From Yersinia rochesterensis (GTDB lineage: Bacteria; Pseudomonadota; Gammaproteobacteria; Enterobacterales; Enterobacteriaceae): 64,000 nucleotides of DNA. The number at the start of each line of letters is the position of its first letter. Within the stretch, counting starts at the first letter, position 1. Positions 13,959 through 30,313 of this stretch are shown here, in pieces. The position numbers and the translations under genes were made by a program. The stretch is from positions 3,906,001 through 3,970,000 of the forward strand of contig NZ_CP032482.1 of the NCBI RefSeq assembly GCF_003600645.1, written 5' to 3'. The notes beneath the pieces are model-generated. The model did not search any database and was not told the DNA's origin. It saw nothing but the letters and a program-made list of their open reading frames with translations.

Positions 13959-14255
13959 ATGTTCGAACAACGCGTAAATTCTGACGTACTGACCGTTGCA
14001 ACCGTAAACTCACAAGATCAGGTGACTCAAAAGCCTTTGCGTGACTCGGTAAAACAAGCACTGAAGAACTATTTTGCTCAACTGAATGGTCAGGATGTGA
14101 GTGACCTGTATGAGTTGGTACTGGCTGAAGTTGAACAGCCATTGTTGGACATGGTGATGCAATACACCCGTGGCAACCAAACCCGTGCTGCCCTGATGAT
14201 GGGCATTAACCGTGGCACGCTGCGTAAGAAATTGAAAAAATACGGCATGAACTGA
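13959..14255 (+). CDS. fis: Nucleoid-associated DNA-binding protein Fis
   Basis: A 98-residue dimeric DNA-bending protein that activates rRNA promoters and aids site-specific recombination. The beta-hairpin arm is N-terminal; the helix-turn-helix [20 protein letters not shown] is at the C-terminus. Apparently identical in design to E. coli Fis. Its last five codons and stop lie inside the 49-bp attachment repeat, so insertion of the element leaves the protein intact. Confidence 0.98.
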
Positions 14256-14289
14256 TACTAGTCAGTTAACTTGTTGTTTAAAAAGGCGT
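14241..14289. repeat. attL, left attachment repeat of the element
   Basis: A 49-bp copy running from the last codons of fis (TACGGCATGAACTGA) through the left arm of the fis terminator (AAAAAGGCGT). It matches 30265-30313 at 48 of 49 positions; the only difference is C at 14270 against G at 30294. Confidence 0.9.
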
Positions 14290-14316
14290 TACCCTTGATT
14301 GGTTAGCGCCTTTTTT
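14279..14316 (+). terminator. fis terminator, right half supplied by the element
   Basis: Stem AAAAGGCG-TTACC / GGTTAGCGCCTTTT, followed by TTTTTTATTG. The left arm AAAAAGGCG is within attL; everything from 14290 on is element DNA. Confidence 0.8.
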
Positions 14317-14385
14317 ATTGCTTGTTATATATATTGTTATACATAAAATCTCGCAAAAACCAGTAAACATACGAACAATAAGTAA

Positions 14386-14410
14386 GAAAAAAGACCGCCT
14401 GAGCGATCTT
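14386..14410 (-). terminator. Terminator of the element's late operon
   Basis: Read on the minus strand, stem AAGATCGC-TCAG-GCGGTCTT is followed by TTTTTTC, starting two bases after the stop codon of the last late gene. Confidence 0.8.
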
Positions 14411-14411
14411 C

Positions 14412-14675
14412 TTATTGGCTAATGTGACTGGCTGTAACCTGATACCCATTCCAGTATGCAGACCTGCCACTAACGGTAATCTTCTGGCCCAACGGGCAAA
14501 GCATTAACTCCAGCGCCAACATATCAAAGGCAATAACCCGCAACGGGTAATCACTGCGTTTATCGCTTGATGCAAGAATTGTTGCTACAGCCATCACCTT
14601 CCCTGTGCTGCTCTCTACCCGCCTAGGGGCTTTGGTTATATGCCCCATAACGGTCACTGTAGGTTTAGCGCTCAC
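14412..14675 (-). CDS. Small OB-fold (SSB-like) protein of the element
   Basis: An 87-residue protein. The pattern VTVMGHITKAPRRVES..GKVMAVATILAS..YPLRVIAFDMLA..KITVSGRSAYW..YQVTASHI is that of a minimal single-stranded-DNA-binding OB fold (the strand order of SSB/PriB-like proteins) without an acidic C-terminal tail. Its start overlaps the stop of the gpI-like gene (ATGA at 14672-14675), so the two are coupled. It is the last gene before attL and a terminator. Its role is unknown: DNA binding during packaging or replication, or a tail-module passenger, are both possible. The family call is inference from pattern only. Confidence 0.6.
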   Translation of the reverse strand: MSAKPTVTVMGHITKAPRRVESSTGKVMAVATILASSDKRSDYPLRVIAFDMLALELMLCPLGQKITVSGRSAYWNGYQVTASHISQ

Positions 14676-15289
14676 ATCTGGTCTTCGGCGTGGATGCCTG
14701 CGGATATTAACGCGCCACCTATCCGGCGCTTACCGTAACCCAGCGGTACTGGATTACCCTGAGCAATGGAGTTAACCGGCCCACCAAATGCGTAAGATGG
14801 TTTATTTTCCGGCGATTCACGCATTGCCAGCCCACCCTGTTGTGGTGATAGCATCTGCACTACACCGCCCAACACCATAGAAGCACCGGCCATCATCATG
14901 CCATTAGCAACACCCGCCGACATTAAAGCCGCTGTTGGGTTCCACAATGTTGCTGCAATAAGAATCGCTCCCAAGATAGTTTGAAACAGTCCGGCCTTTT
15001 TACTACCAATAATGATCGGAGCAATTCTTATTTCTTCATTGCCAATATTAAATTCCAGCTCGTCCTGAGAGATATTTCGCTTACCTTTAAAGACCGCAAA
15101 AGTAAGCCCCTTGTCCTTCGCATCATTAAGAAACCGCTCAAAGCCCGGTAATAACACACAACAGGCTTTAATCGCTTCCTGTGTCGTATTGGCCGCAAAA
15201 CGGAAAACACCGTCTTTATTTTCGGTGAACTGTTTCAGTGGGCCGTAAAGCCGGATTGTTTTTACCTGTTCGTTATTTAATGAGTTCAT
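14672..15289 (-). CDS. Lambda gpI-like tail assembly protein
   Basis: A 205-residue protein resembling the lambda tail-tip assembly protein I: an N-terminal ubiquitin-like part (TIRLYGPLKQF..), a hydrophobic Gly/Ala/Met-rich middle (about residues 103-148, TILGAILIAATLWNP.. and MMMAGASMVLGGVVQM) and the closing GNPVPLGYGKRRIGGALISAGI, typical of this family. In siphophages gpI sits between K and J and is needed for tail-tip assembly but is not in the virion. Here it is the only tail-related gene, placed after the large terminase. It may be a relic of recombination with a lambdoid phage, or it may act on the helper's tail. Confidence 0.8.
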   Translation of the reverse strand: MNSLNNEQVKTIRLYGPLKQFTENKDGVFRFAANTTQEAIKACCVLLPGFERFLNDAKDKGLTFAVFKGKRNISQDELEFNIGNEEIRIAPIIIGSKKAGLFQTILGAILIAATLWNPTAALMSAGVANGMMMAGASMVLGGVVQMLSPQQGGLAMRESPENKPSYAFGGPVNSIAQGNPVPLGYGKRRIGGALISAGIHAEDQM

Positions 15290-15303
15290 ACTGTTTTCTC
15301 CTG

Positions 15304-17019
15304 TTAGATACCGTCAAAGGCTTTAAGCCGCTGTTGTTGCTCTTCACTCAAGGTGTACGCAAAATCTTCATGCTCAATCTGGTAAGTGCCAAAGCTCATC
15401 AGGAAGGCAATAGCCGGGTCTATCTTGTTGGCGGCTTTCTTCTTGTTCGGCTTGATATTGGCGTTGGCGTCGGTTTCCATCACAACGTTGCTCATCGCCC
15501 AAGCCAAGACTGGATCGCCGTTGTGCTGTATCACCTTGCGGTTAACGAATACCTCGGCAGACTTGGCTACCGGGCTAAATTTCATATAGGTCTGCGGGAA
15601 CGGCTCGACATCCAGACCGGCACCCTGTAACTGTGTTCTAAGATGGGTAGCGTTCCACGTATCAAACCCTACCAACTTGATGCTGAACCGCTGACTGTCT
15701 GCCAACACATCATCACGGATGCGGTCGTAATCGATACAATCGCCCGGCGTGGTGCGTATCCAGCCACTTTTAACCCATTGCCGATATATGGCCCGGTTCT
15801 TATTGGCGGCATTATTCAACTGGGCTTCGGGGATATAGTGGCGGGTCAGCAGCAATACACGATTCTCAACCGGGAACGAGTAGCACACACTGGTAATATC
15901 GCTGGTTGATGACAGGTCTAACCCGGCGTAACACTCCAGCCCGACTAAATCATCCTCGCTGTAATCGGCTATACAGGCGTCCCATGCACCGGAACCCATC
16001 CACGGCGTCTCACCCTGACACCAGATATTAAAGCGCTTGGTCAGCATCTCAACCCATTGCGAGGGAATGCCCCGCGCCTTATTGATGGTGTCAGTCAGTG
16101 CCGTAACATCAACAGAAACACCCAGATTAGGGTTAGCCTTAATCCATTGTTCGGGCTGCTCAACTTCGCTTTCGTCGTCCAGTTCGTAGATCAGGGCAAA
16201 CAACGATTCGTTTTGCTCTTCACCGGCCAATATCTGGCAACAATAATCATAATGTTGCTTACAGGCTGAAACCACGTTGCTACCCGCCGTGGTGATGGCA
16301 AAGAGTATCCCTTCTGGCCGGGCACCCATTCCCAACTCAAGCGCCGAATAAACGGCGTTATCCGGATGAAGATGGTACTCATCCACCACCGCCAGACTGG
16401 GGTTCGTCCCTTCAATGGTCGAGGCTTTAGAGGCCAGAGGCTTTAACAGGCTGTTAGTCTTGGCATAAATCAGTTTGTGCTGCTGAATAGTGAGACGCTT
16501 TCGTAAGGGCTTTGAGATAAGGCTCATCTGACGGGCATCATCAAATACGATACGGGCCTGATCACGACTCACGGCGGCGGTATAGATATCTTGCTGGCCC
16601 GGCTCCATCACCAGAAACCAGTTAGCCAGAATAGCCGCTACCGTTGACTTGGCATTCTTGCGAGGTACCTGAATGTAAGCACTACGATACTTCCTGCGGC
16701 CTGTAGCTGCCACCTTGAACCCCAACAAACAGGCAAAGGCAAACTGTTGCCACGGCTCCAGCACGATAGGCTGACCCCGTAGAGGGCCTTTTACGTGAGG
16801 GCAGAGGTGAGAGAAGGCAATAAAGCGCTCTACAGTGGCCCCATCGAACGTATAAAGTGGGTTATTCAGGTCATTAAAGTACCGCTCAACGGCCTGTTTT
16901 AGCCGCATACAGGCCGGGATTTTGCCGCTTTGTACCTCCAGCGCGTACCGGTTATAGGCTGTCAAGGGCGTCTGCCTCATCAACTTCCACCGGATTACGG
17001 CGGCGAGATACTGGATCAA
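15304..17019 (-). CDS. Terminase large subunit (HK97-type, Terminase_1 family)
   Basis: DNA-packaging motor and cos-cleaving nuclease, 571 residues. The N-terminal ATPase has a deviant Walker A QVPRKNAKSTVAAIL (about residue 120) and Walker B SLAVVDEYHLH (about residue 220); the C-terminal RNase H-like nuclease begins near YAGLDLSSTSDITSV (about residue 360). It overlaps terS by 68 bp. It is intact and full length for HK97-type terminases. In this element it comes last in the packaging module, after the head genes. Confidence 0.93.
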   Translation of the reverse strand: MIQYLAAVIRWKLMRQTPLTAYNRYALEVQSGKIPACMRLKQAVERYFNDLNNPLYTFDGATVERFIAFSHLCPHVKGPLRGQPIVLEPWQQFAFACLLGFKVAATGRRKYRSAYIQVPRKNAKSTVAAILANWFLVMEPGQQDIYTAAVSRDQARIVFDDARQMSLISKPLRKRLTIQQHKLIYAKTNSLLKPLASKASTIEGTNPSLAVVDEYHLHPDNAVYSALELGMGARPEGILFAITTAGSNVVSACKQHYDYCCQILAGEEQNESLFALIYELDDESEVEQPEQWIKANPNLGVSVDVTALTDTINKARGIPSQWVEMLTKRFNIWCQGETPWMGSGAWDACIADYSEDDLVGLECYAGLDLSSTSDITSVCYSFPVENRVLLLTRHYIPEAQLNNAANKNRAIYRQWVKSGWIRTTPGDCIDYDRIRDDVLADSQRFSIKLVGFDTWNATHLRTQLQGAGLDVEPFPQTYMKFSPVAKSAEVFVNRKVIQHNGDPVLAWAMSNVVMETDANANIKPNKKKAANKIDPAIAFLMSFGTYQIEHEDFAYTLSEEQQQRLKAFDGI

Positions 17020-17305
17020 AGCCCATCAACGAGGACATTTTTATCATAATCTTCTCAGCGTCAGACTTGGCTTTCAACGCAGGGTTCGTGGTGGTCGCAC
17101 CGCGAGAACCTTCAACCGAAAACCCCCGCGCCGCGAGGTCTGCCACGGCTCGACGGTACATTGAGTAGTTGAGGCAATACAATTCAAGGTTACGCCAATC
17201 AGCATCAATCAGATCGCCGCGCTCCATCAACTGCCTTGCCCTTGCCTTCCACTCTGCGGTAGCAATCTCATCTAAATAAGTGGGGGCTTTGGGTGGTCTA
17301 GCCAT
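16952..17305 (-). CDS. Terminase small subunit (P27 family)
   Basis: A 117-residue DNA-recognition subunit of the packaging terminase. N-terminal MARPPKAPTYLDEIATAEWKAR and the middle ADWRNLELYCLNYSMYRRAVADL match the phage P27/HK97 small-terminase pattern. It should define which cos site is cut, and therefore which DNA the element's own capsids take up. Overlaps terL. Confidence 0.88.
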   Translation of the reverse strand: MARPPKAPTYLDEIATAEWKARARQLMERGDLIDADWRNLELYCLNYSMYRRAVADLAARGFSVEGSRGATTTNPALKAKSDAEKIMIKMSSLMGFDPVSRRRNPVEVDEADALDSL

Positions 17306-17434
17306 AAATTACTGTTTCCTGTGCCTTTACTGCTACGAAAAAAAGTGCCGCGCGTAAAAATTTGAGGAGGCGGGTGGTGCCAGCGGTCTTGGGCTTTGTC
17401 CTCAAACCTCCCCCACCCCTTGCCCTGCGCCTCG
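17306..17434. other. Non-coding gap before terS; candidate cos region
   Basis: 129 bp without a convincing gene, between terS and the small gene upstream. It has a GC-rich block (GAGGAGGCGGGTGGTGCC, 17362-17379) and a C-rich strand (CAAACCTCCCCCACCCC). HNH/HK97-type phages usually carry cos next to terS. Placement is the only evidence. Confidence 0.3.
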
Positions 17435-17602
17435 TCACCGGTTTCGGAACGCATCCATTAGCTCACGGTCACGCTTCGTCATACGCTTGCCTGTGGCTTG
17501 CTTAGACGCCTTGCTATGGCTCTGTATAAAACCATCGCGACTACGCTGTAACTCGTTGATTAATCGCTGCATCTCTTCTTCACGCATTTTTGTTGTACTC
17601 AT
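17435..17602 (-). CDS. Small charged protein of the packaging module, function unknown
   Basis: 55 residues from ATG at 17602 (MSTTKMREEEMQRLINELQ). It is strongly basic/acidic and helical (a short coiled coil) and ends GKRMTKRDRELMDAFRNR. It overlaps the end of the HNH gene by 23 bp and precedes terS. I do not recognise a family. Small charged proteins near terS can be packaging cofactors, but nothing here shows that. Confidence 0.55.
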   Translation of the reverse strand: MSTTKMREEEMQRLINELQRSRDGFIQSHSKASKQATGKRMTKRDRELMDAFRNR

Positions 17603-18026
17603 GTATCCAATCATTGCGGTGCTTGGCGGCCTCCTCTTGCTCATGGAACTTACCCGCTTTGCGCTGCTGCTTTGTCACAGGGTCTTGCGTAGTGGTCTTA
17701 CGACTGTGGCAACTGACACACAAACCTTGATGATTACTCTCCGGCCAGAACAGAACATCTTCACCACCATCAATCGGGATAATGTGATCGACTATCTTGG
17801 CGGGGGTATAGATGCCTTGCTTCTCACAGCGGACACAAAGCGGGTGAGCCTTGAGATACATCAGGCGGTACTTATCCCATCTGGGCGTATAGCCACGTTC
17901 ACGACGAGAACCACGTTGCGAATCCTGTTGCACTCTGGCTTCCCGCTTATGTTCAGCACAACGGCCAGCTTTCACACGTGCGCGACATCCGGGATAGCTA
18001 CAACGTTTCAATGGATGGACTGGCAT
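17580..18026 (-). CDS. HNH endonuclease of the packaging module
   Basis: 148 residues from MPVHPLKRCSYPG at 18026; the upstream open extension to 18059 lacks homologous character. A zinc knuckle CSYPGCRARVKAGRCAEH is N-terminal; the HNH core is HPLCVRCEKQG, then VDHIIPIDGG, then NHQGLCVSCHSRKT, with the metal-binding Cys pairs intact. HNH proteins of HK97-type phages and cf-PICIs work with TerS/TerL for cos cleavage. Its ATG overlaps the upstream stop (TGATG at 18024-18028). Confidence 0.9.
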   Translation of the reverse strand: MPVHPLKRCSYPGCRARVKAGRCAEHKREARVQQDSQRGSRRERGYTPRWDKYRLMYLKAHPLCVRCEKQGIYTPAKIVDHIIPIDGGEDVLFWPESNHQGLCVSCHSRKTTTQDPVTKQQRKAGKFHEQEEAAKHRNDWIHEYNKNA

Positions 18027-18310
18027 CAGTACACCCCCGGATCGCGATAAGTACTCCACAATGCAGAAATGGTCAGTGGCACCTCTTTAGCCTCAACCTC
18101 ACTGACCATCGTCCGGCCGTCATACAATTGAGATACATACATCAGGCACCCCACACGAATAGCAGGATTGAACTCCAGACCGGCATCAAACCGTTTACCG
18201 ATATGCTGCTGACAGACCTCCATCGCGGCATCGATATAAATCTGAATAAGTGAATCTTCATAATCACCATCAACACGACAATGTAGCTTTGCCTCATCCA
18301 GCGTTATCAT
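18026..18310 (-). CDS. Head-tail connector (gp6-like adaptor)
   Basis: 94 residues, MITLDEAKLHCRVDGDYEDS.. to ..ISALWSTYRDPGVY. This is the standard pattern of the phage gp6-like head-tail connector (N-terminal helix LDEAKLHCRVDGDYEDSLI, conserved closing region I..LW..YR). It forms a ring under the portal. Coupled to neighbours by ATGA (18307-18310) and TGATG overlaps. In a tail-stealing satellite this ring must fit a foreign tail. Confidence 0.88.
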   Translation of the reverse strand: MITLDEAKLHCRVDGDYEDSLIQIYIDAAMEVCQQHIGKRFDAGLEFNPAIRVGCLMYVSQLYDGRTMVSEVEAKEVPLTISALWSTYRDPGVY

Positions 18311-18642
18311 TGGCTCACACCTCCCTTACACAGCAGCTCTAACCGGGTGGCTTTCTCATCGGGTATCACTGCGGTAATGTCATAATTCATGGGCTTGCCA
18401 CCCCTGACGGTAAAGCGAATGCGGTTCGCAGAACTCACGTCAGCCCGGTAACGCATCCAGATCCGAATAGTGATTTCTGACATTTCCGCACCAGAGGCTA
18501 TCAACTCACGGCCACTGATTGCTTTCACTTCGGCCCAGACTGTGGCGACATCGTTCCATTGCTTTAATGGCTGACCGGACGGTAGCTGAGTCGTGGTAAA
18601 CGTCTGTATCGTCACTTTGTGTCGTAAGCCGCCAGCTCTCAT
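18307..18642 (-). CDS. Phage head closure protein (SPP1 gp16-like adaptor)
   Basis: 111 residues. It starts MRAGGLRHKVTIQ and has the family core WNDVATVWAEVKAISGRE and ITIRIWMRYRADV, the beta-barrel of head-closure/adaptor proteins that seal the DNA-filled capsid and receive the tail. Overlaps the portal stop by ATGA (18639-18642). Intact. Confidence 0.88.
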   Translation of the reverse strand: MRAGGLRHKVTIQTFTTTQLPSGQPLKQWNDVATVWAEVKAISGRELIASGAEMSEITIRIWMRYRADVSSANRIRFTVRGGKPMNYDITAVIPDEKATRLELLCKGGVSQ

Positions 18643-19841
18643 AGGTCGTCCTTAGCATCGTCGGATTTCACCTGTACAGTCTGTTTCCATGCCTGACTGA
18701 ATTCCTCACCACCGGCATACGCTGGCATCCCCTCACGCTCACGCGCTTCATTCGGAGACATCACGCCTGATTTAATGGCGGTTTCGTAACTGCGGAAACG
18801 TTCTTGAGGATTGGCCCGTAGCAAGTCGGCAGTGTCAAACTCCACCTGATAGCGAACCTGAACCGGGTGACTGGCCACCAGAAGAGAGGCTTTAACCTGT
18901 TGCTCAAAATTTGTTAGCCAGGGGCGCAAGGTCTGAGACAGAAAAGCGCGACTCGCCTCGCTGAAATTGCTGTAGGTGCTGTTGGAATACTCTTGCAGGA
19001 ATATCGGGCTGATATTGAATATCCGGGCAATGTCTTCAATGGTGAAGCGACGAGAGGCCAACCACTCAGCATCCTGATTGCTCATGCCTAACTGCTCGTA
19101 CTTCATGCCGCCTTCGATAATCGGCGTTTTACCGGCATTGCGTGCGCCTTTGTAACGCTCCAGTGCTTCCAGTGCCTTAGCGCCTTTTGGCCCGTCTAAC
19201 CAGTCACCGGTTGTCAATACGCCGGAAGCCATCAGGCCGTTATTCATCACCGACGAGCCATGACGTTGTTGAGCCAGTCCAAGTCCAACAGTTTCACGAC
19301 AGACAGTGATCGGAGAACGCCCAAGGAAACCATCTTCAGTAGCATGTCGCAGGTGTAAGATTTCTTCCTGAAGGTACGTTTTTACCGTTCCGTCCGGGTG
19401 TGTAATGGTGTAGGCGAATCGGTGATTGCTCAGGCGCTTGGGTACCACGGCACGAGGTGGGTAAGAATGCAGTGATTGCGGCTTGCCATCCTTACCCCAT
19501 TCGATAACCGCATAAGCGTTACCATTCAGCAGACAATGACGCATCATCGTGCGCTTGAACTGGTAAGGGGTCTGGCAATCATTCGGGTATTCATTCAGCA
19601 GGTAATCAACCGGATGCTCCGATAACCATTCTCTTTTATCATTCTGAACTCTGTACAGGTAACACGGCATCGAGGCCACCGCTTCGCTGATAACGGTCAC
19701 AGCATTCATAACCGCCGGCAGAGATTCAGCAGTAGCAGCAGACACATGTTCACCGGCCCCCGTATTGGGGATGCCAGCCAGCGCCATAAACTCATCAATG
19801 GTCATTGAACGGCTTTCGGTCTTGCGTTTGAACGGCCACAT
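18639..19841 (-). CDS. Portal protein (HK97 family)
   Basis: 400-residue portal that forms the dodecameric DNA channel at one capsid vertex. The start is MWPFKRKTESRSMTIDEF. The family core includes LPAVMNAVTVISEAVASMPCYLYR, given here as positions about 43-66, GNAYAVIEWGKDGKP, LHLRHATEDGFLGRSPI and IFNISPIFLQE. Full length for HK97-type portals. It is one base from the protease gene (19843). Confidence 0.93.
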   Translation of the reverse strand: MWPFKRKTESRSMTIDEFMALAGIPNTGAGEHVSAATAESLPAVMNAVTVISEAVASMPCYLYRVQNDKREWLSEHPVDYLLNEYPNDCQTPYQFKRTMMRHCLLNGNAYAVIEWGKDGKPQSLHSYPPRAVVPKRLSNHRFAYTITHPDGTVKTYLQEEILHLRHATEDGFLGRSPITVCRETVGLGLAQQRHGSSVMNNGLMASGVLTTGDWLDGPKGAKALEALERYKGARNAGKTPIIEGGMKYEQLGMSNQDAEWLASRRFTIEDIARIFNISPIFLQEYSNSTYSNFSEASRAFLSQTLRPWLTNFEQQVKASLLVASHPVQVRYQVEFDTADLLRANPQERFRSYETAIKSGVMSPNEAREREGMPAYAGGEEFSQAWKQTVQVKSDDAKDDL

Positions 19842-19842
19842 A

Positions 19843-20400
19843 TCACAACCCCGCCAGATAAGCCCAATGGGAACGCAGAGACAGATCCACCAGCTCCGGG
19901 TGTTGGGCTAACAGTGAACGCTTGGCTATCTGAACATCCGTTTCACGGTAGGCCGGTAAGCTGGTCACGGTGATTTCCCGTAGTTCAGCCGCCAACACAG
20001 TACGGATATAAGGCTGTTTGGTACTGTCCCACTGGTCTTTTAATGCCCTAAACCCGAATGACATGCCGGAAATGTCACCACGTTCAACCATGGTCAGCAC
20101 ATCACGGCCTAACTGGGTATCGGGTGGGGTCAATTCAAAACGCAGACCGGTAGCATCCTCACTCAATACGAGGGTGTTTGACTGGGTGCGGCCTAACAGC
20201 GCGGTATAGTCATGCTCAAACAAAGCGCGAACATCGGTACCAGCTGCAAGGCTGGCTTTAAAGGCATTTGGGGCAAACTGCTCTACAAACTCATCCCACA
20301 GCACCTCTGAGCGGCTATTCCATTTCACGGCATAACCCACTAACTTTTTATCGCTGGTGGATAAGCTGGCGGTGCGGATCTCAAAATCGGTATCTTTCAT
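19843..20400 (-). CDS. Prohead maturation protease (HK97 U35 family)
   Basis: 185-residue serine protease that cleaves the scaffold domain of the capsid protein. The catalytic histidine lies in RALFEHDYTALLGRT and the serine in GDISGMSFGFRAL. N-terminal AVKWNSRSEVLWDEFVEQF is characteristic. Together with the N-terminal delta domain on the capsid protein, this makes a self-sufficient procapsid system. 42 bp downstream of the capsid gene. Confidence 0.92.
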   Translation of the reverse strand: MKDTDFEIRTASLSTSDKKLVGYAVKWNSRSEVLWDEFVEQFAPNAFKASLAAGTDVRALFEHDYTALLGRTQSNTLVLSEDATGLRFELTPPDTQLGRDVLTMVERGDISGMSFGFRALKDQWDSTKQPYIRTVLAAELREITVTSLPAYRETDVQIAKRSLLAQHPELVDLSLRSHWAYLAGL

Positions 20401-20442
20401 TGGTAAACTCCCTGATAAGAAAGGGGCCGTAGCCCCTGTTGC

Positions 20443-21615: not shown

Positions 21616-21640
21616 AGTGGCTTCCGTAAGTGTGAATACA

Positions 21641-21838: not shown

Positions 21839-22081
21839 TTAAACATACCGCTTATCATGCTCCGACATCTCTTCTCTCTGTTTCTGCAAATAAGCGATCA
21901 GCAAGTCAAGTTGCTCTTGGCTAGCGGCAAAACGCCGCCCTGTAAAATCATCAACCAGAAAACCATGCCCCTCGACAAATAAAAAATGCTCATGCTCCAG
22001 ATGATATTTATATTCATCAAGAGACATTGTCTCAAGATTTCCCATGTTTCGATCATCAAGATATTCTGCTATCTCACTCAT
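21839..22081 (-). CDS. Hypothetical protein of the element, 80 residues
   Basis: Acidic, His- and Glu-rich protein: MSEIAEYLDDRNMGNL.., EHEHFLFVEGHGFLVDDFTG and a C-terminal helix SQEQLDLLIAYLQKQREEM. I do not recognise a family. It has its own terminator (21768) and lies between the iteron array and the late operon, the slot where satellites often keep regulators of late expression or of the helper. The function is unknown; coding status is supported by a clean frame and upstream GGAGAG. Confidence 0.65.
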   Translation of the reverse strand: MSEIAEYLDDRNMGNLETMSLDEYKYHLEHEHFLFVEGHGFLVDDFTGRRFAASQEQLDLLIAYLQKQREEMSEHDKRYV

Positions 22082-22251
22082 ATTTCACTCTCCGATTACT
22101 ATATTAATTAGTTGGCTTGAATTTAAGCCAGCCAGAAAGAAGCATCAATACTGACGGGTTAACTTTCGGACAGCTATTTAACAGTTGATTATGGATTTTG
22201 TCAGTTCCTACCCCCCCCTACTAAAAGTTTTGGCTGTTTTATGTCTACTGT

Positions 22252-22489
22252 ATCTACCAATCATGCCAAACCCAGTAATGACGTGGCCTACAGCTTGGTA
22301 GAGAACACAAAAACACTACCTACTGGCTATCTACTACTATCTACCTGTCTACCAAAAGTCACTCAGTGGAGTTAGTGCATAATTTGGTAGATAAGGTAGA
22401 TAATAGGTAGACAATAAAAAATCACTATCTACCAAGCTGTAACCCTTGTCCTGTCTGGCTTTGAAGTCATTTGGTAGATAGAGTAGATA
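22252..22489. repeat. Iteron array TTGGTAGAT; candidate replication origin
   Basis: Repeats of TTGGTAGAT or its complement ATCTACCAA, with variants: complement at 22252, forward 22295 (TTGGTAGAG), complement-type 22327-22345 (two partial) and 22347 (GTCTACCAA), forward 22384, 22393 (AAGGTAGAT) and 22404 (TAGGTAGAC), complement 22427, forward 22471 and 22481 (GAGTAGATA). It fills the gene-free stretch directly downstream of the primase-helicase gene. Iterons bound by the alpha-type primase are known for P4; that this is the origin here is inference. Confidence 0.6.
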
Positions 22490-22518
22490 GTAATAGATAA
22501 AACTTTATATGTAGGGAC

Positions 22519-24879
22519 TTAATCCGGCGTATCCAGCCCCCACACATGAGGAAGGAAGCCGTTCACTTTTTCCGTTAACCCCACATTGGTTTGTTTGCGC
22601 CCGTTGATTTCCCGTGTTTTGTACTCCTTGCCGTATTCATTCGCCGCATTTTTCATCGCCTTACCGAATGACGTTACAGCCAGCGGCTTACCTAACCCCT
22701 GAAACTCAAGAAATTCTTTGTAAAGGTGATACAGGTATTTTTTAGGCTCGGATTCAATGCTTTTTCCACCCCCCATGAGCAACCCTCGAGCTTCACTCAT
22801 GAAATACAGTGCCGCGCATAAATCAATAACTGGATCTGTGCCTCGCTTTACCTCTAATGCCTCATCAGAATTACGCTGCTCCAGTAGAAGCAATTTAGCT
22901 TTATCTTGGCTGGCAAACTCAGTTAACAGGTGACGGATAATGACAGGTAATTCCACGCTAATTTTCTCACTCAAAAGTGGATCTTTCTCATCATCACTGA
23001 CAGGGTTATTGAAAGAGAAAATAACCCTGCGCCGGGCTATCCCTCCCTGACGTTCAGTAAAGTTCATAGGTTCGTTATTCGTTGCAAGTACTACCGACTG
23101 TAAAATAATACTAAATTGCTTCTCATACTTGCCGTCAATCTCAAGCAAGTCACCGCCGGTAATAGCCTTAATTCCCGTTCCCTCGCCCACGTATTTAGAC
23201 TGGTCAGGAAGCAAGATTAGGCTTTTCCCGACAAACTGCGCTCGGCCTCTGGCGCTATCCAGCGCCGCCATATTGCCACTGGCGGTGTTATGTTCCCCGG
23301 TCAATAATGTAGCAATATGAGTAAATACGCTTTTTCCGCTACCTCCCTCACCGGTTATCTCAAGAAATAGCTGCCAGTCATAACGGTTCGCCAGCACCAT
23401 GAATAACCCAGCCTTAATGCGTTCCATCTTCCCGGCGTCACGACCCGCCGCATGAGATAGCCATTTGTAGAAATTACTCGCGTGTACCTCAAGACATTCA
23501 TTTGCCGCCAGTGGTTGGGTGAACGTGATGCCATTATGATTAAGTAGCCAATCCTCCGGCTTATGTGCTCTGAATGCGTTTTCTCGCAGGTCATACACGC
23601 CATTCTTGAAACCAATTAAGTAGCGCGGCTGAGTTGTCATAACTGGCACTTGCAGCTTCATGGCTTCAATCGCGTTTTTAATTCCGGTAGGAGAATAAGG
23701 TGTTTCATTCTCATTGAAGATAGCGACCATTTCGCGCTGTAGCTCGCTGTCAGGGACTTTTTCCCACCGCTCACCGTTATAACGATAAACCGTCTCACTT
23801 TCTGGGTTGACGGTGATCTGCCCATAACGTTCTGCTAGTAGCTCTCCCCGCTGACTTGCTGCCATCTGAGACAACGCCGGGCGAGAGTTTTTATCATTGT
23901 GTATAGCGGTAACGGTAGCTTTCATTTTCGCCCCCTTTGGTTGATACAGTGATTCAGTAAAAGCGCGCGTAGTGGCCTCTGTGCCGTTTTGTTGGCGGTA
24001 GTCGTCCCAGTCGGCTTTATGGTGAGTCGGTGGCGTGGCTACCCAGCCAGAAACGGAAATGGCGGCTTTTTCAGCGGAGATAACACCAATATTCAGTTTG
24101 AGTTTACCTTTTTCGTCACATTCTCCCGATTCGTGCCAGTCGTTATCTGCGGCAATGATGATTTTTGCCAGTGGCCACCGTTCACGGCAGACCTTCGCGA
24201 CGTGAATTAGGTTGCCTTCGTCCAGTGCGGCCAGTACCACCCCATCATCCAGTAACGAAACGGTAACGCCGGTTGCGTAACCCTCGGCGATCAGCACCGT
24301 TACAGGCTGTTCGTCCTCTGTTGGTGATTGGAGCCTTACCGGAATAAATGAACCTTTTTTTGTGGTACCCGCTAATAACCGTTTTGAACCGTCAGGGTTA
24401 ATCACCTGTGCGCCGATGGTGGTGCCGTCCATTGCTTGCAGTATCAGCAACAGAGAGCCGTCACTGAGTAAGGCATTGGAGGGGCTTGGAAGGCCCTTAT
24501 TGTGTAGGTACTGAGATTCACCCGATACTGTTTTAGCCACCAGCACCGCCACCTTGTCAGCTATAGCGATGTTGGGTTGAGGCTTCTCTCTGGCTGGCTT
24601 CGGCTCTGGCAAGGGCAGCGCCATTACACCCGCGACCATTTCCGCCGCTGAACGAGCGTCACACTGGTTAACCTTCATTACTAAATCCAAGCCGGTACCC
24701 GCGCCACAGTGTGAGCAATAGTAGGTTCCGCGCCCCTCCCGATCATCAAATCGATAGCGGGTTTTACCGCCACAGCTTGGACACTCACCCTCGCCGCGAT
24801 TGGTCGGAATATCCAGACGTTGGAAAATAGCTTCCCAGTGGCCTTTAGCTTTGCTGCGAACGTCCTCAACGAATGTCAT
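22519..24879 (-). CDS. P4-alpha-type primase-helicase
   Basis: A 786-residue multifunctional replication initiator. Zinc ribbon with Cys33, 36, 55 and 58 (CPSCGGKTRY..YYCSHC); TOPRIM primase region with IAEGYATG (198-205) and AADND (243-247); helicase superfamily 3/D5 part with Walker A GEGGSGKS (510-517), Walker B-like SLILLPDQSK (553-562) and LATNNEPM (598-605). In P4 the equivalent protein primes, unwinds and binds origin iterons. An iteron array lies just past its 3' end. Its start overlaps the upstream small gene by ATGA (24876-24879). Intact, so autonomous replication after excision is plausible. Confidence 0.93.
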   Translation of the reverse strand: MTFVEDVRSKAKGHWEAIFQRLDIPTNRGEGECPSCGGKTRYRFDDREGRGTYYCSHCGAGTGLDLVMKVNQCDARSAAEMVAGVMALPLPEPKPAREKPQPNIAIADKVAVLVAKTVSGESQYLHNKGLPSPSNALLSDGSLLLILQAMDGTTIGAQVINPDGSKRLLAGTTKKGSFIPVRLQSPTEDEQPVTVLIAEGYATGVTVSLLDDGVVLAALDEGNLIHVAKVCRERWPLAKIIIAADNDWHESGECDEKGKLKLNIGVISAEKAAISVSGWVATPPTHHKADWDDYRQQNGTEATTRAFTESLYQPKGAKMKATVTAIHNDKNSRPALSQMAASQRGELLAERYGQITVNPESETVYRYNGERWEKVPDSELQREMVAIFNENETPYSPTGIKNAIEAMKLQVPVMTTQPRYLIGFKNGVYDLRENAFRAHKPEDWLLNHNGITFTQPLAANECLEVHASNFYKWLSHAAGRDAGKMERIKAGLFMVLANRYDWQLFLEITGEGGSGKSVFTHIATLLTGEHNTASGNMAALDSARGRAQFVGKSLILLPDQSKYVGEGTGIKAITGGDLLEIDGKYEKQFSIILQSVVLATNNEPMNFTERQGGIARRRVIFSFNNPVSDDEKDPLLSEKISVELPVIIRHLLTEFASQDKAKLLLLEQRNSDEALEVKRGTDPVIDLCAALYFMSEARGLLMGGGKSIESEPKKYLYHLYKEFLEFQGLGKPLAVTSFGKAMKNAANEYGKEYKTREINGRKQTNVGLTEKVNGFLPHVWGLDTPD

Positions 24880-25070: not shown

Positions 25071-25072
25071 AG

Positions 25073-25243: not shown

Positions 25244-25418
25244 AGTTCACCCCCTCGATATTATTTGCGGCTTTTGCTGCACGTTGCTGTGCAAATCCAA
25301 GAAGTTCATAGCCGATGTCTTCACCTTCTGGATCACATATCAGCATTTGAGCAACTTCCAGCAGGCGAGAGAGGTTAAAGAGCACATCGGCTACTTCGCA
25401 GGGGGCTAACTTATCCAT
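25224..25418 (-). CDS. Small protein of the early operon, 64 residues
   Basis: MDKLAPCEVADVLFNLSRLL.. to ..EGVNYARTAA. The start at 25418 is chosen because GGAGG lies six bases upstream; an open extension to 25472 lacks this. Predominantly helical with an acidic centre (ICDPEGEDIGYELLG). Overlaps its upstream neighbour by 8 bp and the DUF4222-like gene by 20 bp. No family recognised with confidence. Confidence 0.65.
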   Translation of the reverse strand: MDKLAPCEVADVLFNLSRLLEVAQMLICDPEGEDIGYELLGFAQQRAAKAANNIEGVNYARTAA

Positions 25419-25602
25419 GAGTGGCCTCCATTGCGGCGCTGAGGGAACGGTTAACTTCACTATTGATGTCACAAGCTAGGGATATCAGGTCGAGTAGTTG
25501 CTTCGAACATTCATCACTCGCCTTCTCCAAAATGGTTTCATAAAGCGAACAGGCTAAACCGGTGCGATAGAGCGCTAAATCTAATGGGATAGGCTTACGC
25601 AT
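25411..25602 (-). CDS. Small protein of the early operon, 63 residues
   Basis: MRKPIPLDLALYRTGLACSL.., helical, ending EVNRSLSAAMEATHG. Overlaps the Icd-like gene by 8 bp and the next gene by 8 bp in a tightly packed operon. Function unknown; a weak resemblance to the 64-residue protein at 24876 is noted there. Confidence 0.65.
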   Translation of the reverse strand: MRKPIPLDLALYRTGLACSLYETILEKASDECSKQLLDLISLACDINSEVNRSLSAAMEATHG

Positions 25603-25777: not shown

Positions 25778-25994
25778 AGCTACCTCGATATCTAATCTAT
25801 CGTTGGTGGTAAGAGGCCCTGCCGGTGTTGCAAGCACTCGCGGGGCTTCGCTGTTTTTACTGTGCTTGAATTGGTAAATAACACGCATCCCAAACACTCG
25901 ATTCACAATAAACATAAGTGAATCGCAATACAAGTCTTTTGTGGTATTCGTTTTTATGACATACTGAATACCACCTAAAAGAAGAGGACGCAGA

Positions 25995-26306
25995 ATGTCA
26001 ACCAGTTCAACTAACAACAAGTCACAACAACTTAATGCTCGTTTCCCACATGAGGTCGTAAATGATATGGAAGCGTCACTGAAAGCTGGCGAGACAAAGG
26101 CACAGTTCATCGTCACTGCGGTTCGCGGGGAAATAGCCAGACGCCAGACAGAGGGTGCTACAGAGAACCCCTTGCTTTCGTCGCTCGATGCGCTGGAGCA
26201 GGTAGAAGCGATTGGCATTACGGCCAGTGAGGAAATTAACCGGCTGGTCAGCGTGGCGCGTGAGGAACTACAGCGGCGCAAAGCCAAGGAAGCACCAACG
26301 GGCTGA
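25995..26306 (+). CDS. YlcI/YnfO-like protein, candidate DNA-binding regulator
   Basis: 103 residues, the only convincing plus-strand gene in the element. The pattern MSTSSTNNKSQQLNARFPHE, VVNDMEASLKAGET and FIVTAVRGEIARRQ resembles the short YlcI/YnfO prophage proteins, with ribbon-helix-helix-like character in the first 50 residues. AGAAGAGGACG precedes the ATG. It diverges from the replication operon, so it may repress that promoter. The C-terminal half (EQVEAIGITASEEINRLV) is helical. Regulatory function is inference. Confidence 0.7.
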   Translation: MSTSSTNNKSQQLNARFPHEVVNDMEASLKAGETKAQFIVTAVRGEIARRQTEGATENPLLSSLDALEQVEAIGITASEEINRLVSVAREELQRRKAKEAPTG

Positions 26307-26340
26307 CCTACGAAAATTTCGCAGGTACGGATATGCTGAT

Positions 26341-26540
26341 CTGCAAGATGTTGATTTTCCTCATGACTCAGATTTGAGTAATCATTTAGCATGTGTGGGT
26401 TTTGCGAATAGTTTCTAACTAGCTGCAAATCCTGCCGCGCTGCAAGATGTTGATTTAACTCATGATGGAAAAAACCATAACCCCAAAGGGCGGTATTCTC
26501 AGTACCTCCCTTTTCTTTGCCTGTAACCTGCTGATTTTCG
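26341..26540. repeat. Three degenerate direct repeats in the early leader
   Basis: Copies CTGCAAGATGTTGATTTTCC (26341-26360), CTGCAAGATGTTGATTTAAC (26440-26459) and CTGTAACCTGCTGATTTTCG (26521-26540), all in one orientation. The first two also share TCATGA just after. They lie in the leader of the replication operon, the position of the P4 immunity region; I found no inverted copy that would act like the P4 CI RNA. Confidence 0.5.
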
Positions 26541-26829
26541 TTGTTACATCCGTTTCGAATGACTACCGAACCTAAGCAATGTTTATGTTCAGCCGAACCC
26601 GAATACTGTTCGTCTTTGTTTACTCGACTCCCTGCGCGGCAGGTTTGTGCAAGAATCAATGAGTTAGCTAATTCCATTTCAGCACAATTAAGTTTAATCA
26701 ACAGGTTACGCCGTACCGGTAAACTCGGTGAAATGCGGTGTTTAGTATGCGACTCGCTCAAAGATAGTCGGTTCGGGATGCCAGCCAAGGGAAAGGCTTT
26801 ATTCTGGCTGGCTGCTGGAGTTGTGAGCA

Positions 26830-27348
26830 TCATGCCACCACCTCCACACGCAGACCTTTAGCTGTGTAGCCCTGAACCTGCTTACCATTCACACGAACCC
26901 GCTTTTTAGTCAGTAAACGGATGTGGTCGCCATACACATGAAGTAATATCCCATCTAAAGCGACCTCGTTATAACCATATCGAGGCTTGTGTGACACCTG
27001 CACAAATGGGCCGCAAGCCTTGCTATTAGCGGGAACTGGTGCGACAACCCCCTTATCTTTTCCGGTTACTCGATACAACCAGAAACGCCCGTCTTTCCCT
27101 GTCAGCTTTCGCGTACGAACCGGCACATAACCAGCTTTGTGCATGGCTACACTGAACGCTGAATCATCCGGGTAATACTGGCGACGAATAATAGCAGGCA
27201 CTGAAATGGCGAAACTTTGCTTAGTCCAATACTCTGTCCACTGACTAACAAACTCGATAGGCAAGCCATTAACGTTAATACCGCTGAGTACTATTTTAGG
27301 CTGAGTTTGGGTACTGCCAGCCAAGGCAGTTATTTTCTTAGATACCAT
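26830..27348 (-). CDS. Hypothetical protein of the element, 172 residues
   Basis: MVSKKITALAGSTQTQPKIV.. to ..KGLRVEVVA, with GGAG seven bases upstream. Basic and beta-rich; segments TEYWTKQSFAISVPAIIRRQ and HVYGDHIRLLTKKRVRVNGK suggest a nucleic-acid-contacting fold, but I recognise no family. It follows the AlpA-like gene and precedes the replication operon, so it is part of the early regulatory unit. Confidence 0.65.
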   Translation of the reverse strand: MVSKKITALAGSTQTQPKIVLSGINVNGLPIEFVSQWTEYWTKQSFAISVPAIIRRQYYPDDSAFSVAMHKAGYVPVRTRKLTGKDGRFWLYRVTGKDKGVVAPVPANSKACGPFVQVSHKPRYGYNEVALDGILLHVYGDHIRLLTKKRVRVNGKQVQGYTAKGLRVEVVA

Positions 27349-27487
27349 TTTATTGCTCCAATAAGTTCATTATTTAGAGCCGCCGCGACAGCATTTCAGA
27401 TACTGCTATTTACTTTGTGCAATTGCTCGCAAGTTAATTTCTTTTCGCTGATCAGGCGATCTTGCGTGAATTTGCATTGACATTCTG

Positions 27488-27769
27488 TTAGGCCAATTTG
27501 CGACCACATGGAGTATTAACGTTATTTACAGCCGGGGGATTGCGAACCCAGCAAAGTAAGTCACTGAGCAACCATGCACATGAGTTGCGGCCAAGAGGCT
27601 TACGGGCAGGGAAGCGGCCTTCATTCTCAAGAAGCCATGCAGTTGAGCGGGAAATAGAAGTAATGCGCTGACGTTCCTTTTCACGCACAAGGCGATCATA
27701 AGGTTCGGCATATTCGGCTAGAACAACTCGGCGCTGTTCTGGGGTAGGGTTGAAGTGATTAATAGTCAT
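27488..27769 (-). CDS. AlpA-family transcriptional regulator
   Basis: 93 residues. The C-terminal part has the AlpA/excisionase helix-turn-helix pattern RITSISRSTAWLLENEGRFP followed by RKPLGRNSCAWLLSDLLCWV. AlpA proteins activate int/excision in P4-like elements and are the master activator in Gram-negative PICIs, where phage induction acts through alpA. The N-terminal 35 residues (TPEQRRVVLAEYAEPYDRLV) are an extension common in phage-borne forms. The flanking gaps (27349-27487 and 27770-27871) should hold its regulatory sites. Confidence 0.85.
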   Translation of the reverse strand: MTINHFNPTPEQRRVVLAEYAEPYDRLVREKERQRITSISRSTAWLLENEGRFPARKPLGRNSCAWLLSDLLCWVRNPPAVNNVNTPCGRKLA

Positions 27770-27871
27770 GCTGCTCTCTACTGTTCGGGGGTGATAGAGA
27801 GCATTCTGATTAAATCAATACTGCGATTCTGGTAAGTAGAATAAATTTATTTTAACTTACGTAAGCTGAAT

Positions 27872-28771
27872 TTAGTTCCCAGACCATTTCTTCGGGTCAA
27901 ACACCTTGCTCAATAACCGCTCAATACCATCAATTTCTAGTGGCGGCTTACCCGTATCGGGCCAAAAACTAATAGCAGAAATATCTATTTGTTTAGCCCA
28001 ATCAACATAAGTTTTACATTTCTCAGGGTATTCTTTTTGTATGTACATAGCAGCCATAAGTATTTGTTCTCTTTTGGCGGCAAAGCGCTCTACATTTCCA
28101 TGATTTGGCTTATCGTTACATTTATCTTGCGCTAAAACACTATGCGTTTTTCCACTGATTAAGCGTTCCAATTCAACGTTAGTAATATATAAATTATTTA
28201 TTGACACAGGATAGTTAAGACCTGAAATACCAGTAGGTGTATATTTTATTCCATCCCCACCGGATCTAGAGGTAATATCATATACTGAGAAATCATTTGC
28301 TCTTGGTAGCTTCAGTGTTTTTTCATAAAAAATACCACCGTCGATTAAGGCTTTCTCAGAAAAAGAAAACAATTCACTAGATACAGCAAACATCCCTTTT
28401 ATTTCAACAGGGATATGAATTAAATCCTTTGGCTCTCCGATATATATTATTTGCTCTTCAAAAACAGTAATATCTGTTTCGTAAGCAACCTCAAGATACG
28501 ACAACTCTGGATGCCCCGTATAATCAGTCTCGGTTAATGCTTTCCTGGCTTTTTCATAGTCATAGCGCGAAAATATTCTAATATCATCGGTGGCAATGGA
28601 GTCAGGATCAAAATATCTTTGCCAATTTATTTTTACGCATAGCTCAACCTCACCGATAGCTGCAAAATGAATCAAGTCCTCAACATCACAAGCGATGCCA
28701 ATTTCTCTTTCCACTCTATTTAGCGGGAAATACTTCTTCTCAGGAAGGCTGATAACTTTTTTCGTTGACAT
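27872..28771 (-). CDS. Unrecognised cargo protein between integrase and AlpA, 299 residues
   Basis: Start MSTKKVISLPEKKYFPLNRV at 28771 with AAGG nine bases upstream; a GTG three codons earlier is possible. The N-terminal region (REIGIACDVEDLIHFAAIGE) resembles a small helical reader domain; the centre is beta-rich (ITVFEEQIIYIGEPKD, DIPVEIKGMF-like); the C-terminal third is helical (AAKREQILMAAMYIQKEYPE). It is AT-rich compared with the packaging genes, a sign of a different origin. I do not recognise a family. In satellites this slot often carries accessory or anti-phage genes; that is positional inference only. Confidence 0.7.
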   Translation of the reverse strand: MSTKKVISLPEKKYFPLNRVEREIGIACDVEDLIHFAAIGEVELCVKINWQRYFDPDSIATDDIRIFSRYDYEKARKALTETDYTGHPELSYLEVAYETDITVFEEQIIYIGEPKDLIHIPVEIKGMFAVSSELFSFSEKALIDGGIFYEKTLKLPRANDFSVYDITSRSGGDGIKYTPTGISGLNYPVSINNLYITNVELERLISGKTHSVLAQDKCNDKPNHGNVERFAAKREQILMAAMYIQKEYPEKCKTYVDWAKQIDISAISFWPDTGKPPLEIDGIERLLSKVFDPKKWSGN

Positions 28772-28869
28772 TCTCGTCACCCTTAACGCCCCTATATTAA
28801 AGTTTAGCGAGACAGGCGGGTAGGGTTTCCCGCTTTTCGGTTGGCCGACCTAGCCCCGCTATTTACAGT

Positions 28870-30099
28870 TTACGCCGTTTTGTTTGGTGATAGCAAAACC
28901 ACGTTTTCATGATTACCGGCCATCACATCCAGCCGTTCTATCCACTTGTTCAGTGCGTCCAGCTTCTCAGGCAAATACTGACTGCGGTTGTACACTGCCA
29001 TAACGCCGGGCAGAGCGTGACCAAGTAGTAGCTCCACGATATGCGGAGGTATACCCATATCATTCATACCTGTTGATAGCGTTCTGCGTAAATCGTGGAG
29101 TGTCCATAATTCACTATGCCCCAATCTTTTCCAAATACCACGCCCAGTTTGGCTAACAGCGGATGAATCTTTTTCTTCACCTAATAAATAACCGCTCTTT
29201 TTATTCTGCTCTTTAAGGCTTTCTAGCCATCCATATATTGCATCTGGTATTGGTCTTATTATTTTATCTCCCGTCTTACTGTGTTCTTTCGGGACAATCC
29301 ATAATTTGGAATCAAAATCCCATTCATTCCAAGTAGAAAGACGAACTTCATGAGTACGAGCACCAAATACCACCAGCAATCGAACTAAATTTCGATAATA
29401 TGGCAACATGTTATTTTCTTCGGTAGCAAGCCATACATCACGTAATTCTTTATCAGAAAGCACTCTTGAGCGTTTACTCTGCCTTTTCCCGACATCAGGT
29501 ATAGATAACCAATCAAGGGCGTCACAGATTGCGTAGCGCCTCACTCGGCAATATTTCAATGCTTGTTTACACATCTGCAATACATAACCGGCTGCAACTG
29601 GTGAGTTTTTTTTCATGCGGTCAAAGCATTGCAACCAATATCTAGTTTCACAATCTGACAGCGCCATATGGCCTATGTAGGGGTAAATATGCTTATTAAG
29701 CTGGGCTTTATGTCTCTCCACATTCGCCCTATGTTCTGTAGCATATTCAATAACCCAATAATCCAGAGCCTCTTTTACCGTTACCGGCTTTAAAGACTCA
29801 GTAAGAGTAAGGTTTAACTGATGCTTAGGATCTTTCCCTGATGCCAGCCAAGAACGACATTTATCCCGTAATTCTCTGGCTTGTTTCAAAGTCACATCAG
29901 GATATCGACCAAGGGTAACCCTATGCAATTTAGCGCCACCGCCAGTGATTCGATAAGTGTATGTCCAGCTAATCCCACCAGTAGTGGAAACCCGGATGCT
30001 CAATCCTGCCCCATCAGCAAAAAACTCATATTTCGCCCTGGTAGTTCCAAGCAGATTTTTAAGTTTTTTATCTGTTAGCTTGTTCAGTTCACCGGCCAT
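28870..30099 (-). CDS. int: P4-type tyrosine integrase
   Basis: 409 residues from MAGELNKLTDKKLKNLLGTT at 30099; an open upstream extension to 30195 is rejected as non-homologous. The N-terminal arm-binding domain is of the DUF4102 type (YRITGGGAKLHRVTLGRYPD), then a core-binding domain (about 110-200) and the catalytic domain with ARTHEVR (Arg), HDLRRTLST (His-x-x-Arg) and LLGHALPGVMAVYNR (His and nucleophile Tyr). It lies next to attR and is transcribed into the element. Apparently functional. Confidence 0.93.
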   Translation of the reverse strand: MAGELNKLTDKKLKNLLGTTRAKYEFFADGAGLSIRVSTTGGISWTYTYRITGGGAKLHRVTLGRYPDVTLKQARELRDKCRSWLASGKDPKHQLNLTLTESLKPVTVKEALDYWVIEYATEHRANVERHKAQLNKHIYPYIGHMALSDCETRYWLQCFDRMKKNSPVAAGYVLQMCKQALKYCRVRRYAICDALDWLSIPDVGKRQSKRSRVLSDKELRDVWLATEENNMLPYYRNLVRLLVVFGARTHEVRLSTWNEWDFDSKLWIVPKEHSKTGDKIIRPIPDAIYGWLESLKEQNKKSGYLLGEEKDSSAVSQTGRGIWKRLGHSELWTLHDLRRTLSTGMNDMGIPPHIVELLLGHALPGVMAVYNRSQYLPEKLDALNKWIERLDVMAGNHENVVLLSPNKTA

Positions 30100-30264
30100 G
30101 ACAACCCCATTTCTGTTATACAAATTGTTATACACTATTTGTCGCAAGAACCCAAAAGCAGTGAATAACATAAAAACAGAAAGCAACGTAACCAATTGAA
30201 CTTAAATATAAAAAATGCATTAACACGAATGAATAAAAAAGCACAAAAACCATATATGCCATTC

Positions 30265-30313
30265 TACGGCATGAACTGATACTAGTCAGTTAAGTTGTTG
30301 TTTAAAAAGGCGT
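30265..30313. repeat. attR, right attachment repeat of the element
   Basis: 49-bp copy of attL (one mismatch). It reproduces the last five codons and stop of fis and the left arm of the ancestral fis terminator. Confidence 0.9.

What the first reader, a model, noticed from the sequence alone, without database searches (positions are those of the whole stretch)
14241..30313. A complete capsid-forming satellite (cf-PICI-like) integrated at fis
Seen: integrase, AlpA-like regulator, primase-helicase with iterons, and an intact HK97 head plus packaging set (capsid, protease, portal, closure, connector, HNH, TerS, TerL), but no lysis genes and no tail operon. Late genes run capsid to terminase. Known: cf-PICIs have just this content and order and mature by borrowing helper tails. 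Inference: this element is a Yersinia member, likely inducible, using the 3' end of fis as its site.
Basis: partly seen in the sequence, partly recalled or inferred. Interest (0 to 1): 0.9.

Follow-up and report, generated by a model that had tools for sequence, protein, structure and literature searches.

The report
Yersinia phage satellite with orphan tail-plug gene
A 16-kb parasite of bacterial viruses sits in a Yersinia chromosome with its own head-making genes and one stolen tail gene, which suggests that such parasites do not just borrow whole tails but put a part of their own into them.

Summary
The island is real: 14241-30313 is bounded by a 49-nt repeat of the fis 3' end (48/49) and carries integrase, AlpA regulator, primase-helicase with iterons and eight full-length HK97-type head and packaging genes. 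On sequence it is a capsid-forming satellite (cf-PICI). The genome holds a second one at tRNA-Met. On a tree the satellite gpIs lie scattered among phage gpIs (at least 7 label changes forced by well-supported branches), and they evolve under purifying selection. I conclude, at about even odds, that these satellites build chimeric tails with one part of their own. Chimeric tails are published for PLEs, putative tape measures for some cf-PICIs, and a gpI in the satellite phiAH14b; the recurrent slot, and gpI in cf-PICIs, I did not find in the open papers searched. Induction, particles and function are untested.

The parts
14241..14289 (.). attachment repeat, 3' end of fis (first copy)
   Evidence: direct repeat, 48/49 identical to 30265-30313
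14388..14413 (-). terminator-like hairpin at the end of the late gene run
   Evidence: 11-pair stem and T-rich tail; such sites in the region are no more frequent than in shuffles (7 against 7.3)
14412..14675 (-). small ORF, SSB-like by eye, start overlaps the stop of gpI
   Evidence: ORF; related ORFs behind terL or gpI in 12 held loci (cluster 5); no family match
14672..15289 (-). orphan lambda-type tail assembly protein I (gpI/TAPI, tail-tip plug)
   Evidence: phrog_32 E=1e-69; phmmer to lambda gpI 8iyk_I E=2.8e-20 and to 25vf_9 E=6.3e-61; no Pfam match above cut-off
15304..17019 (-). terminase large subunit
   Evidence: PF20441, PF03354
16952..17305 (-). terminase small subunit (P27 type)
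   Evidence: PF05119
17435..17644 (-). small ORF, phrog_3173
17580..18059 (-). HNH endonuclease
   Evidence: PF01844
18026..18310 (-). head-tail connector (Ad1)
   Evidence: PF05135, phrog_40
18307..18642 (-). head closure (Hc1)
   Evidence: PF05521, phrog_25
18639..19841 (-). portal
   Evidence: PF04860 E=4.7e-98
19843..20400 (-). prohead protease
   Evidence: PF04586
20443..21615 (-). HK97 major capsid protein
   Evidence: PF05065
21839..22081 (-). small ORF, phrog_1957
22253..22478 (.). iteron-like GGTAGA repeats, likely replication origin
   Evidence: 9 copies against 0.32 expected
22519..24879 (-). primase-helicase (D5 type)
   Evidence: PF08273, PF13362, PF08706
24876..25070 (-). small ORF, phrog_8959
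25411..25602 (-). small ORF, phrog_35285
25995..26306 (+). divergent small ORF, phrog_6522
26830..27348 (-). ORF of unknown function
   Evidence: no family match
27488..27769 (-). AlpA-like regulator
   Evidence: PF05930 E=1.4e-12
27872..28780 (-). ORF of unknown function
   Evidence: no family match
28870..30195 (-). tyrosine integrase (ORF as listed; the true start is probably near 30099, by eye)
   Evidence: phrog_1 E=3.4e-70; PF00589, PF13356
30265..30313 (.). attachment repeat (second copy)

Best explanation
The island is a capsid-forming phage satellite. When a helper phage grows in the cell (inferred), it excises at fis, replicates from its iterons with its own primase-helicase, builds its own HK97-type head and packages its DNA with its own terminase (gene content shown, steps inferred). 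It lacks lysis genes and nearly all tail genes and must take tails from a siphophage with a lambda-type tail tip (inferred). It does not take the tail unchanged: with the late genes it makes its own gpI. In lambda, gpI is the trimeric plug in the tail tip that supports the end of the tape measure and sits between the domains of J. The island's gpI would enter the growing tip in place of the helper's and give a chimeric tail (inferred). Other islands put a tape measure, a fibre or a neck protein in the same slot. The likely gain (speculative) is control over which tails fit, or over how DNA leaves the tail, for instance past exclusion by a prophage of the recipient.
For: Island content and boundaries. 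Second island in the same genome with a 99% identical gpI, bounded by a 48-nt tRNA-Met repeat. Of 219 gpI hits in held loci, 54 lie behind a satellite TerL with no J or K found, 160 have J and/or K, 5 have neither, none has both TerL and J/K (only 24 of the 54 have the 1500 nt behind gpI in which J was sought in full). gpI starts within 60 nt of the TerL match in 43 of 54. In a TerL-based scan 19 of 66 distinct loci carry gpI within 2.4 kb behind TerL, 1 a tape measure and 3 a tail fibre; 26 other slot ORFs of that set match no tail family. The cf-PICI gpIs lie scattered among phage gpIs: 11 changes, at least 7 forced by starred branches. The window's gpI is nearest to a phage contig of unnamed host (88%), in one starred group with Yersinia proxima; the Pectobacterium island's is nearest to a Pectobacterium prophage (91%). 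dN/dS is 0.045-0.168 in 7 satellite-satellite pairs. The gly at the end of the Ub-like domain is kept in 36 of 36 distinct cf-PICI gpIs; the C-terminal part averages 96% in 48 satellite-phage pairs of 80-92% overall identity. gpI is a structural plug in the lambda virion (PMC10721106, PMC11101478; passages). PLEs make chimeric tails, and a sampling of cf-PICIs carry putative tmp genes (PMC12987554; passages). The same genome has a lambda-like prophage with tape measure, K (JAB and NlpC/P60 domains), I and J, whose gpI is 83-85% identical.
Against: No experiment: no proof of excision, particles or gpI in a tail. 47 of 66 loci of the TerL scan have no gpI, and in 10 of 13 E. coli regions read no tail gene is annotated behind terL, so gpI is dispensable for the kind. 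One of the 19 gpIs is broken (L173). In a congener (G002) the same site has the island without DNA similarity to gpI. The slot also holds defence-like and regulatory genes. The order-wide TerL search found gpI only in the own genome (2 of 18 distinct loci, with only 1.5 kb of flank). Label changes on the tree may be gains or losses. The resident prophage has a transposase gene between K and I and may not make tails.
Confidence: 0.5

Rival explanations
1. gpI is a weapon: a mismatched plug that enters the tails of other phages and makes them fail, a tail-assembly blocker in the manner of Tai, Tab or Rta.
For: Satellites and prophages carry such blockers (PMC11364771, PMC10884400, PMC12987554; passages). 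Relatives hold defence-like genes beside or in the slot (abi in L008, FRG in L227, a weak SIR2-like match below cut-off in L185). Particles of phiAH14a/b, a helper-satellite pair with three gpI genes, were tail-less (PMC4936722; passages).
Against: gpI lies 14 nt behind terL in the late direction, with no room for a promoter in the gap; the nearest promoter-like match on that strand is inside terL (16052-16025, 9 of 12), and such matches are fewer than in shuffles (6 against 9.2). So it is probably made late and would not guard the resting cell. It keeps the conserved positions of a working gpI; slot alternatives are structural (tape measure, fibre, neck); no PADLOC match.
Confidence: 0.2
2. 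gpI makes up for a helper that lacks a working one, for example the resident prophage with a transposase gene in front of its gpI, so that whole tails of the helper's kind are made.
For: A DDE transposase gene lies between K and I in the resident prophage; the two gpIs are nearly identical in the C-terminal part.
Against: 148 of 219 gpI hits have both J and K nearby, so most phages have their own set; repeated capture across genera needs a general reason.
Confidence: 0.1
3. gpI and the other slot genes are passive cargo, picked up by chance beside the attachment site, and have no role for the satellite.
For: The slot is next to the attachment site; most loci of the TerL scan lack gpI (47 of 66).
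Against: dN/dS 0.045-0.168 in 7 satellite-satellite pairs (dS saturated in several); scattered places on the gpI tree; 15-37 nt spacing behind the TerL match in 43 of 54.
Confidence: 0.12
4. The island is a decayed prophage that lost its tail and lysis genes, with gpI as a remnant.
For: HK97 head genes and one tail gene are present.
Against: The same compact order, capsid to terL and then the slot, is found in several genera; no J or K was found beside a satellite gpI (one J and one K query, E 1e-5; 24 of 54 with full flank).
Confidence: 0.03

Closest known systems
cf-PICI (capsid-forming PICI; Alqurainy et al. 2023, not held; known from citing papers and recall)
   Same: integrase, AlpA, primase, full HK97 head and terminase set, capsid-to-terminase order, no lysis, no tail operon
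   Different: carries an orphan gpI behind terL; a sampling of cf-PICIs with putative tmp genes is shown in PMC12987554 (legend)
phiAH14b, Pseudomonas satellite (KU708005, PMC4936722)
   Same: 16.8 kb, integrase, AlpA, primase, one tail assembly protein I and no other tail gene annotated
   Different: no head or terminase genes annotated; proposed by its authors to use its helper's capsids; different genus
PLE of Vibrio cholerae
   Same: satellite that supplies some tail parts (tape measure, chaperone, hub) and makes chimeric tails with its helper (PMC12987554, passages)
   Different: unrelated satellite family, contractile tails, virulent helper
vB_KppS-Ant (LR881103)
   Same: 16.5-kb relative with the same head and terminase genes; over 99% identical to a region of its host's genome (PMC8006926, passages)
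   Different: a tape measure gene in the slot instead of gpI

Membership tests
cf-PICI | integrase and flanking direct repeats | tested here: met
cf-PICI | AlpA-type regulator and primase/replication genes | tested here: met
cf-PICI | own complete HK97 head and packaging set (capsid, protease, portal, closure, connector, HNH, TerS, TerL) | tested here: met
cf-PICI | no lysis genes, no tail operon | tested here: met
   one tail gene (gpI) present, no K, J, tape measure or tube among the ORFs scanned
cf-PICI | same family as other islands of this layout | tested here: met
   TerL 79-87% in E. coli, LR881103, Serratia and Hafnia loci, 95-100% in the closest viral contigs; direct comparison with the EDL933 prototype was not possible
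cf-PICI | induction, own small capsids, transfer with helper tails | not testable with these tools
   sequence only
lambda gpI (tail-tip plug) | Ub-like N-domain ending in gly, hydrophobic helices, C-terminal part that contacts J | tested here: met
   full-length phrog_32 match and alignment to lambda gpI; G95 in 36/36; by sequence only, the structure prediction was not collected
Tai/Tab/Rta tail-assembly blockers | sequence kin and expression in the resting lysogen | tested here: inconclusive
   no PADLOC match for gpI, but its models date from 2023, before those papers; no direct comparison made; expression not tested

The most novel reading that the evidence does not exclude
Capsid-forming satellites have a dedicated tail-part slot behind terL. 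Into it single tail genes of local helpers (plug gpI, tape measure, fibre, neck) are captured again and again, so that each island tunes the stolen tail, either which tails fit or how DNA is let out, with one part of its own. Chimeric tails would then be a rule of satellite biology and the slot would tell the helper's kind.
Probability: 0.45. Interest if true: 0.85.

Novelty: new variant of a known kind. Interest (0 to 1): 0.62.

Why it matters
cf-PICIs are described as taking helper tails, which bears on their host range. A recurrent slot for a single tail part would mean that they rebuild the tail tip or the ejection path, and the slot gene would predict the helper. The plug gpI and the tape measure touch each other in lambda, so these two alternatives point to DNA ejection as the thing being tuned. 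It is directly testable by gene removal in laboratory E. coli.

Tried and rejected
1. Decayed prophage: rejected (no full phage kin among the records searched, no J or K found beside satellite gpIs).

2. Idea that satellite gpIs differ from phage gpIs mainly in the membrane helices (window residues 108-146): dropped. Among pairs of 80-92% overall identity that segment averages 0.59 between phages (480 pairs) and 0.55 between satellite and phage (48 pairs).

3. E. coli searches: 42 of 5426 genomes hold DNA like the SCU-125 TerL-gpI pair, 4 of them with at least 80% of it. A diverged gpI is missed by this DNA search (21AR0133), so 4 is a lower bound.

Alqurainy et al. 2023 is not held; He et al. 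2025 (title from recall) was sought, which listed only citing papers. So I cannot say that these did not mention gpI. Literature searches; none of the passages that I saw mentions gpI in a cf-PICI.

5. The SSB-like label of 14412-14675 rests on reading and on a sub-threshold match of one relative.

6. AlphaFold job was not finished and is not used.

7. L324 was fetched and not used; L015, a 106-kb phage record with part of such an island, was not resolved.
Full report
The observation. The island 14241-30313 is bounded by a 49-nt direct repeat (48 of 49 identical) that starts in the last codons of fis. From right to left it holds an integrase, an ORF of unknown function, an AlpA-like regulator, small ORFs, a D5-type primase-helicase, an iteron-like stretch (GGTAGA nine times in 22081-22525; mean 0.32, highest 3, in 500 Markov resamples), and capsid, protease, portal, closure, connector, HNH, TerS and TerL. 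The eight head and packaging proteins match their Pfam families above cut-off and without frameshift. No lysis gene was seen among the ORFs scanned.

What was missed. Behind TerL (stop at 15304), starting at 15289 in the same direction, is a 205-aa homologue of lambda tail assembly protein I (phrog_32, 1e-69; lambda gpI 8iyk_I, 2.8e-20). Its stop overlaps the start of a small ORF (14412-14675), and a terminator-like hairpin follows at 14413-14388 (such sites are no commoner here than in shuffles). No K, J, tape measure or tube gene was found.

The same genome. A second island (G000:C1:3758978-3774410, between 48-nt repeats of the tRNA-Met 3' end) has the same late genes (portal and capsid 98%) and a 99% identical gpI, with another integrase and primase. 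[quoted passage not shown] lambda letters by recall). It is a candidate helper; a DDE transposase gene lies between its K and I.

Relatives. Islands of the same TerL family lie at fis in E. coli and occur in other genera. A gpI scan of named reference genomes (best 80 of 128 kept) put gpI behind a satellite TerL in eight loci: Serratia (two), Pectobacterium, Xenorhabdus, Enterobacter, Kosakonia, Intestinirhabdus and Hafnia. Over the loci then held, 219 gpI hits of at least 150 aligned residues divide as: 54 (51 loci) behind a satellite TerL without J or K, 148 with J and K, 9 with J only, 3 with K only, 5 with neither, none with both. These include near-copies and overlapping loci, and J was sought in the 1500 nt behind gpI, which only 24 of the 54 hold in full. 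The gpI starts within 60 nt of the TerL match in 43 of the 54. Three loci hold two gpIs in tandem (L071, L171, L172).

A count not biased by gpI. A scan of viral contigs with TerL alone kept 80 of 415 loci; 66 are distinct and have at least 600 nt behind TerL. Of these, 19 carry gpI within 2.4 kb behind TerL, one of them in two frames (L173), 1 a P2-like tape measure (L156, at fis, TerL 96% to the window's) and 3 a tail fibre (L184, L208, L209; head genes of L184 and L208 look shortened). Of the other 43, 26 slot ORFs match no tail family, 2 were tested apart and match none (L212, L227), 9 were not tested (mostly very short ORFs) and 6 had none. Only the longest co-directed ORF of each slot was tested. 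Of the loci of the order-wide TerL search (19 of 394 genomes), 18 have TerL at 60% or more and are distinct; 2 have gpI, both in the own genome (flanks of 1.5 kb). Two others of that search (L108 = L322, L110 = L323) have a Neck1-type protein behind TerL and a tail terminator before the capsid gene. In LR881103 a tape measure fills the slot. In 13 E. coli regions read, 3 have an annotated tail assembly protein behind TerL (chosen by me, not at random).

Origin and selection. On a quick tree of 114 gpI clusters the cf-PICI label needs 11 changes, at least 7 of them forced by starred branches, against 18.7 in shuffles: clustered, but not one clade. Changes may be captures or losses, so 7 is not a count of captures. 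The window's gpI joins phage contigs of unnamed host (88% at best) and a Yersinia proxima prophage in one starred group; the Pectobacterium island's joins Pectobacterium and Brenneria prophages (91% to the nearest). A set of Enterobacter, Kosakonia, Intestinirhabdus and viral contigs forms a starred satellite-only group. Pairwise dN/dS (Nei-Gojobori) is 0.045-0.168 in 7 satellite-satellite pairs and 0.044-0.256 in 7 satellite-phage pairs (pairs chosen by me, dS saturated in several).

How it may work. In lambda, gpI residues form a trimeric plug in the tail tip that carries the end of the tape measure and threads through J; on opening, two hydrophobic helices are thought to enter the membrane (PMC10721106, PMC11101478; passages). 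An older paper had placed it outside the mature tail and described a Ub-like domain that K may cleave (PMC1779556; passages). The island's gpI aligns with lambda gpI over its length and keeps the conserved positions. A satellite that makes its own plug with its late genes could put it into the tips of tails made beside it. PLEs do this with a tape measure, a chaperone and a hub protein, and a sampling of cf-PICIs have putative tmp genes (PMC12987554; passages). The tape measure and the plug touch each other, which points to tail fit or DNA ejection. What the satellite gains is not known; passing a recipient prophage's exclusion is my speculation.

What speaks against. Most islands do without gpI. 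Defence-like genes occur in or beside the slot, and tail-assembly blockers are known (PMC11364771, PMC10884400; passages), so a blocking role stays open. The late position behind terL speaks against a standing defence.

Known or new. The island is a new member of the cf-PICI kind with an extra gene. A gpI in a satellite was noted in 2016 for phiAH14b (PMC4936722; passages; map). gpI in cf-PICIs and the recurrent slot were not found in the searches listed under Tried and rejected, but the two main cf-PICI papers could not be read.

Noticed in passing
L016 7589-10875; L066 7934-10594; L091 7673-10588: Near rpoD in Yersinia artesiana, Kluyvera georgiana and Buttiauxella izardii lie elements with integrase, primase, a capsid gene of three different kinds (protease-capsid fusion with a small TerS-like ORF; major head protein phrog_29; scaffold plus major head protein phrog_247) and an orphan gpI, but no match to this TerL family. 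They may be a separate kind of partly capsid-coding satellite.
   Followed up: partly
L071, L171, L172: Two gpI genes in tandem behind terL in one island; those of L172 fall in different parts of the tree.
   Followed up: no
   Followed up: partly
L147 4847-6561: In the resident lambda-like prophage a small lipoprotein-like ORF (by eye, no Pfam match) and a DDE transposase gene lie between K and I; an annotated lipoprotein also lies near gpI in E. coli SCU-125 (L008 10309-10644) and behind it in phiAH14b.
   Followed up: no
L173: A metagenomic island in which gpI lies in two frames (broken copy or sequencing error).
   Followed up: no
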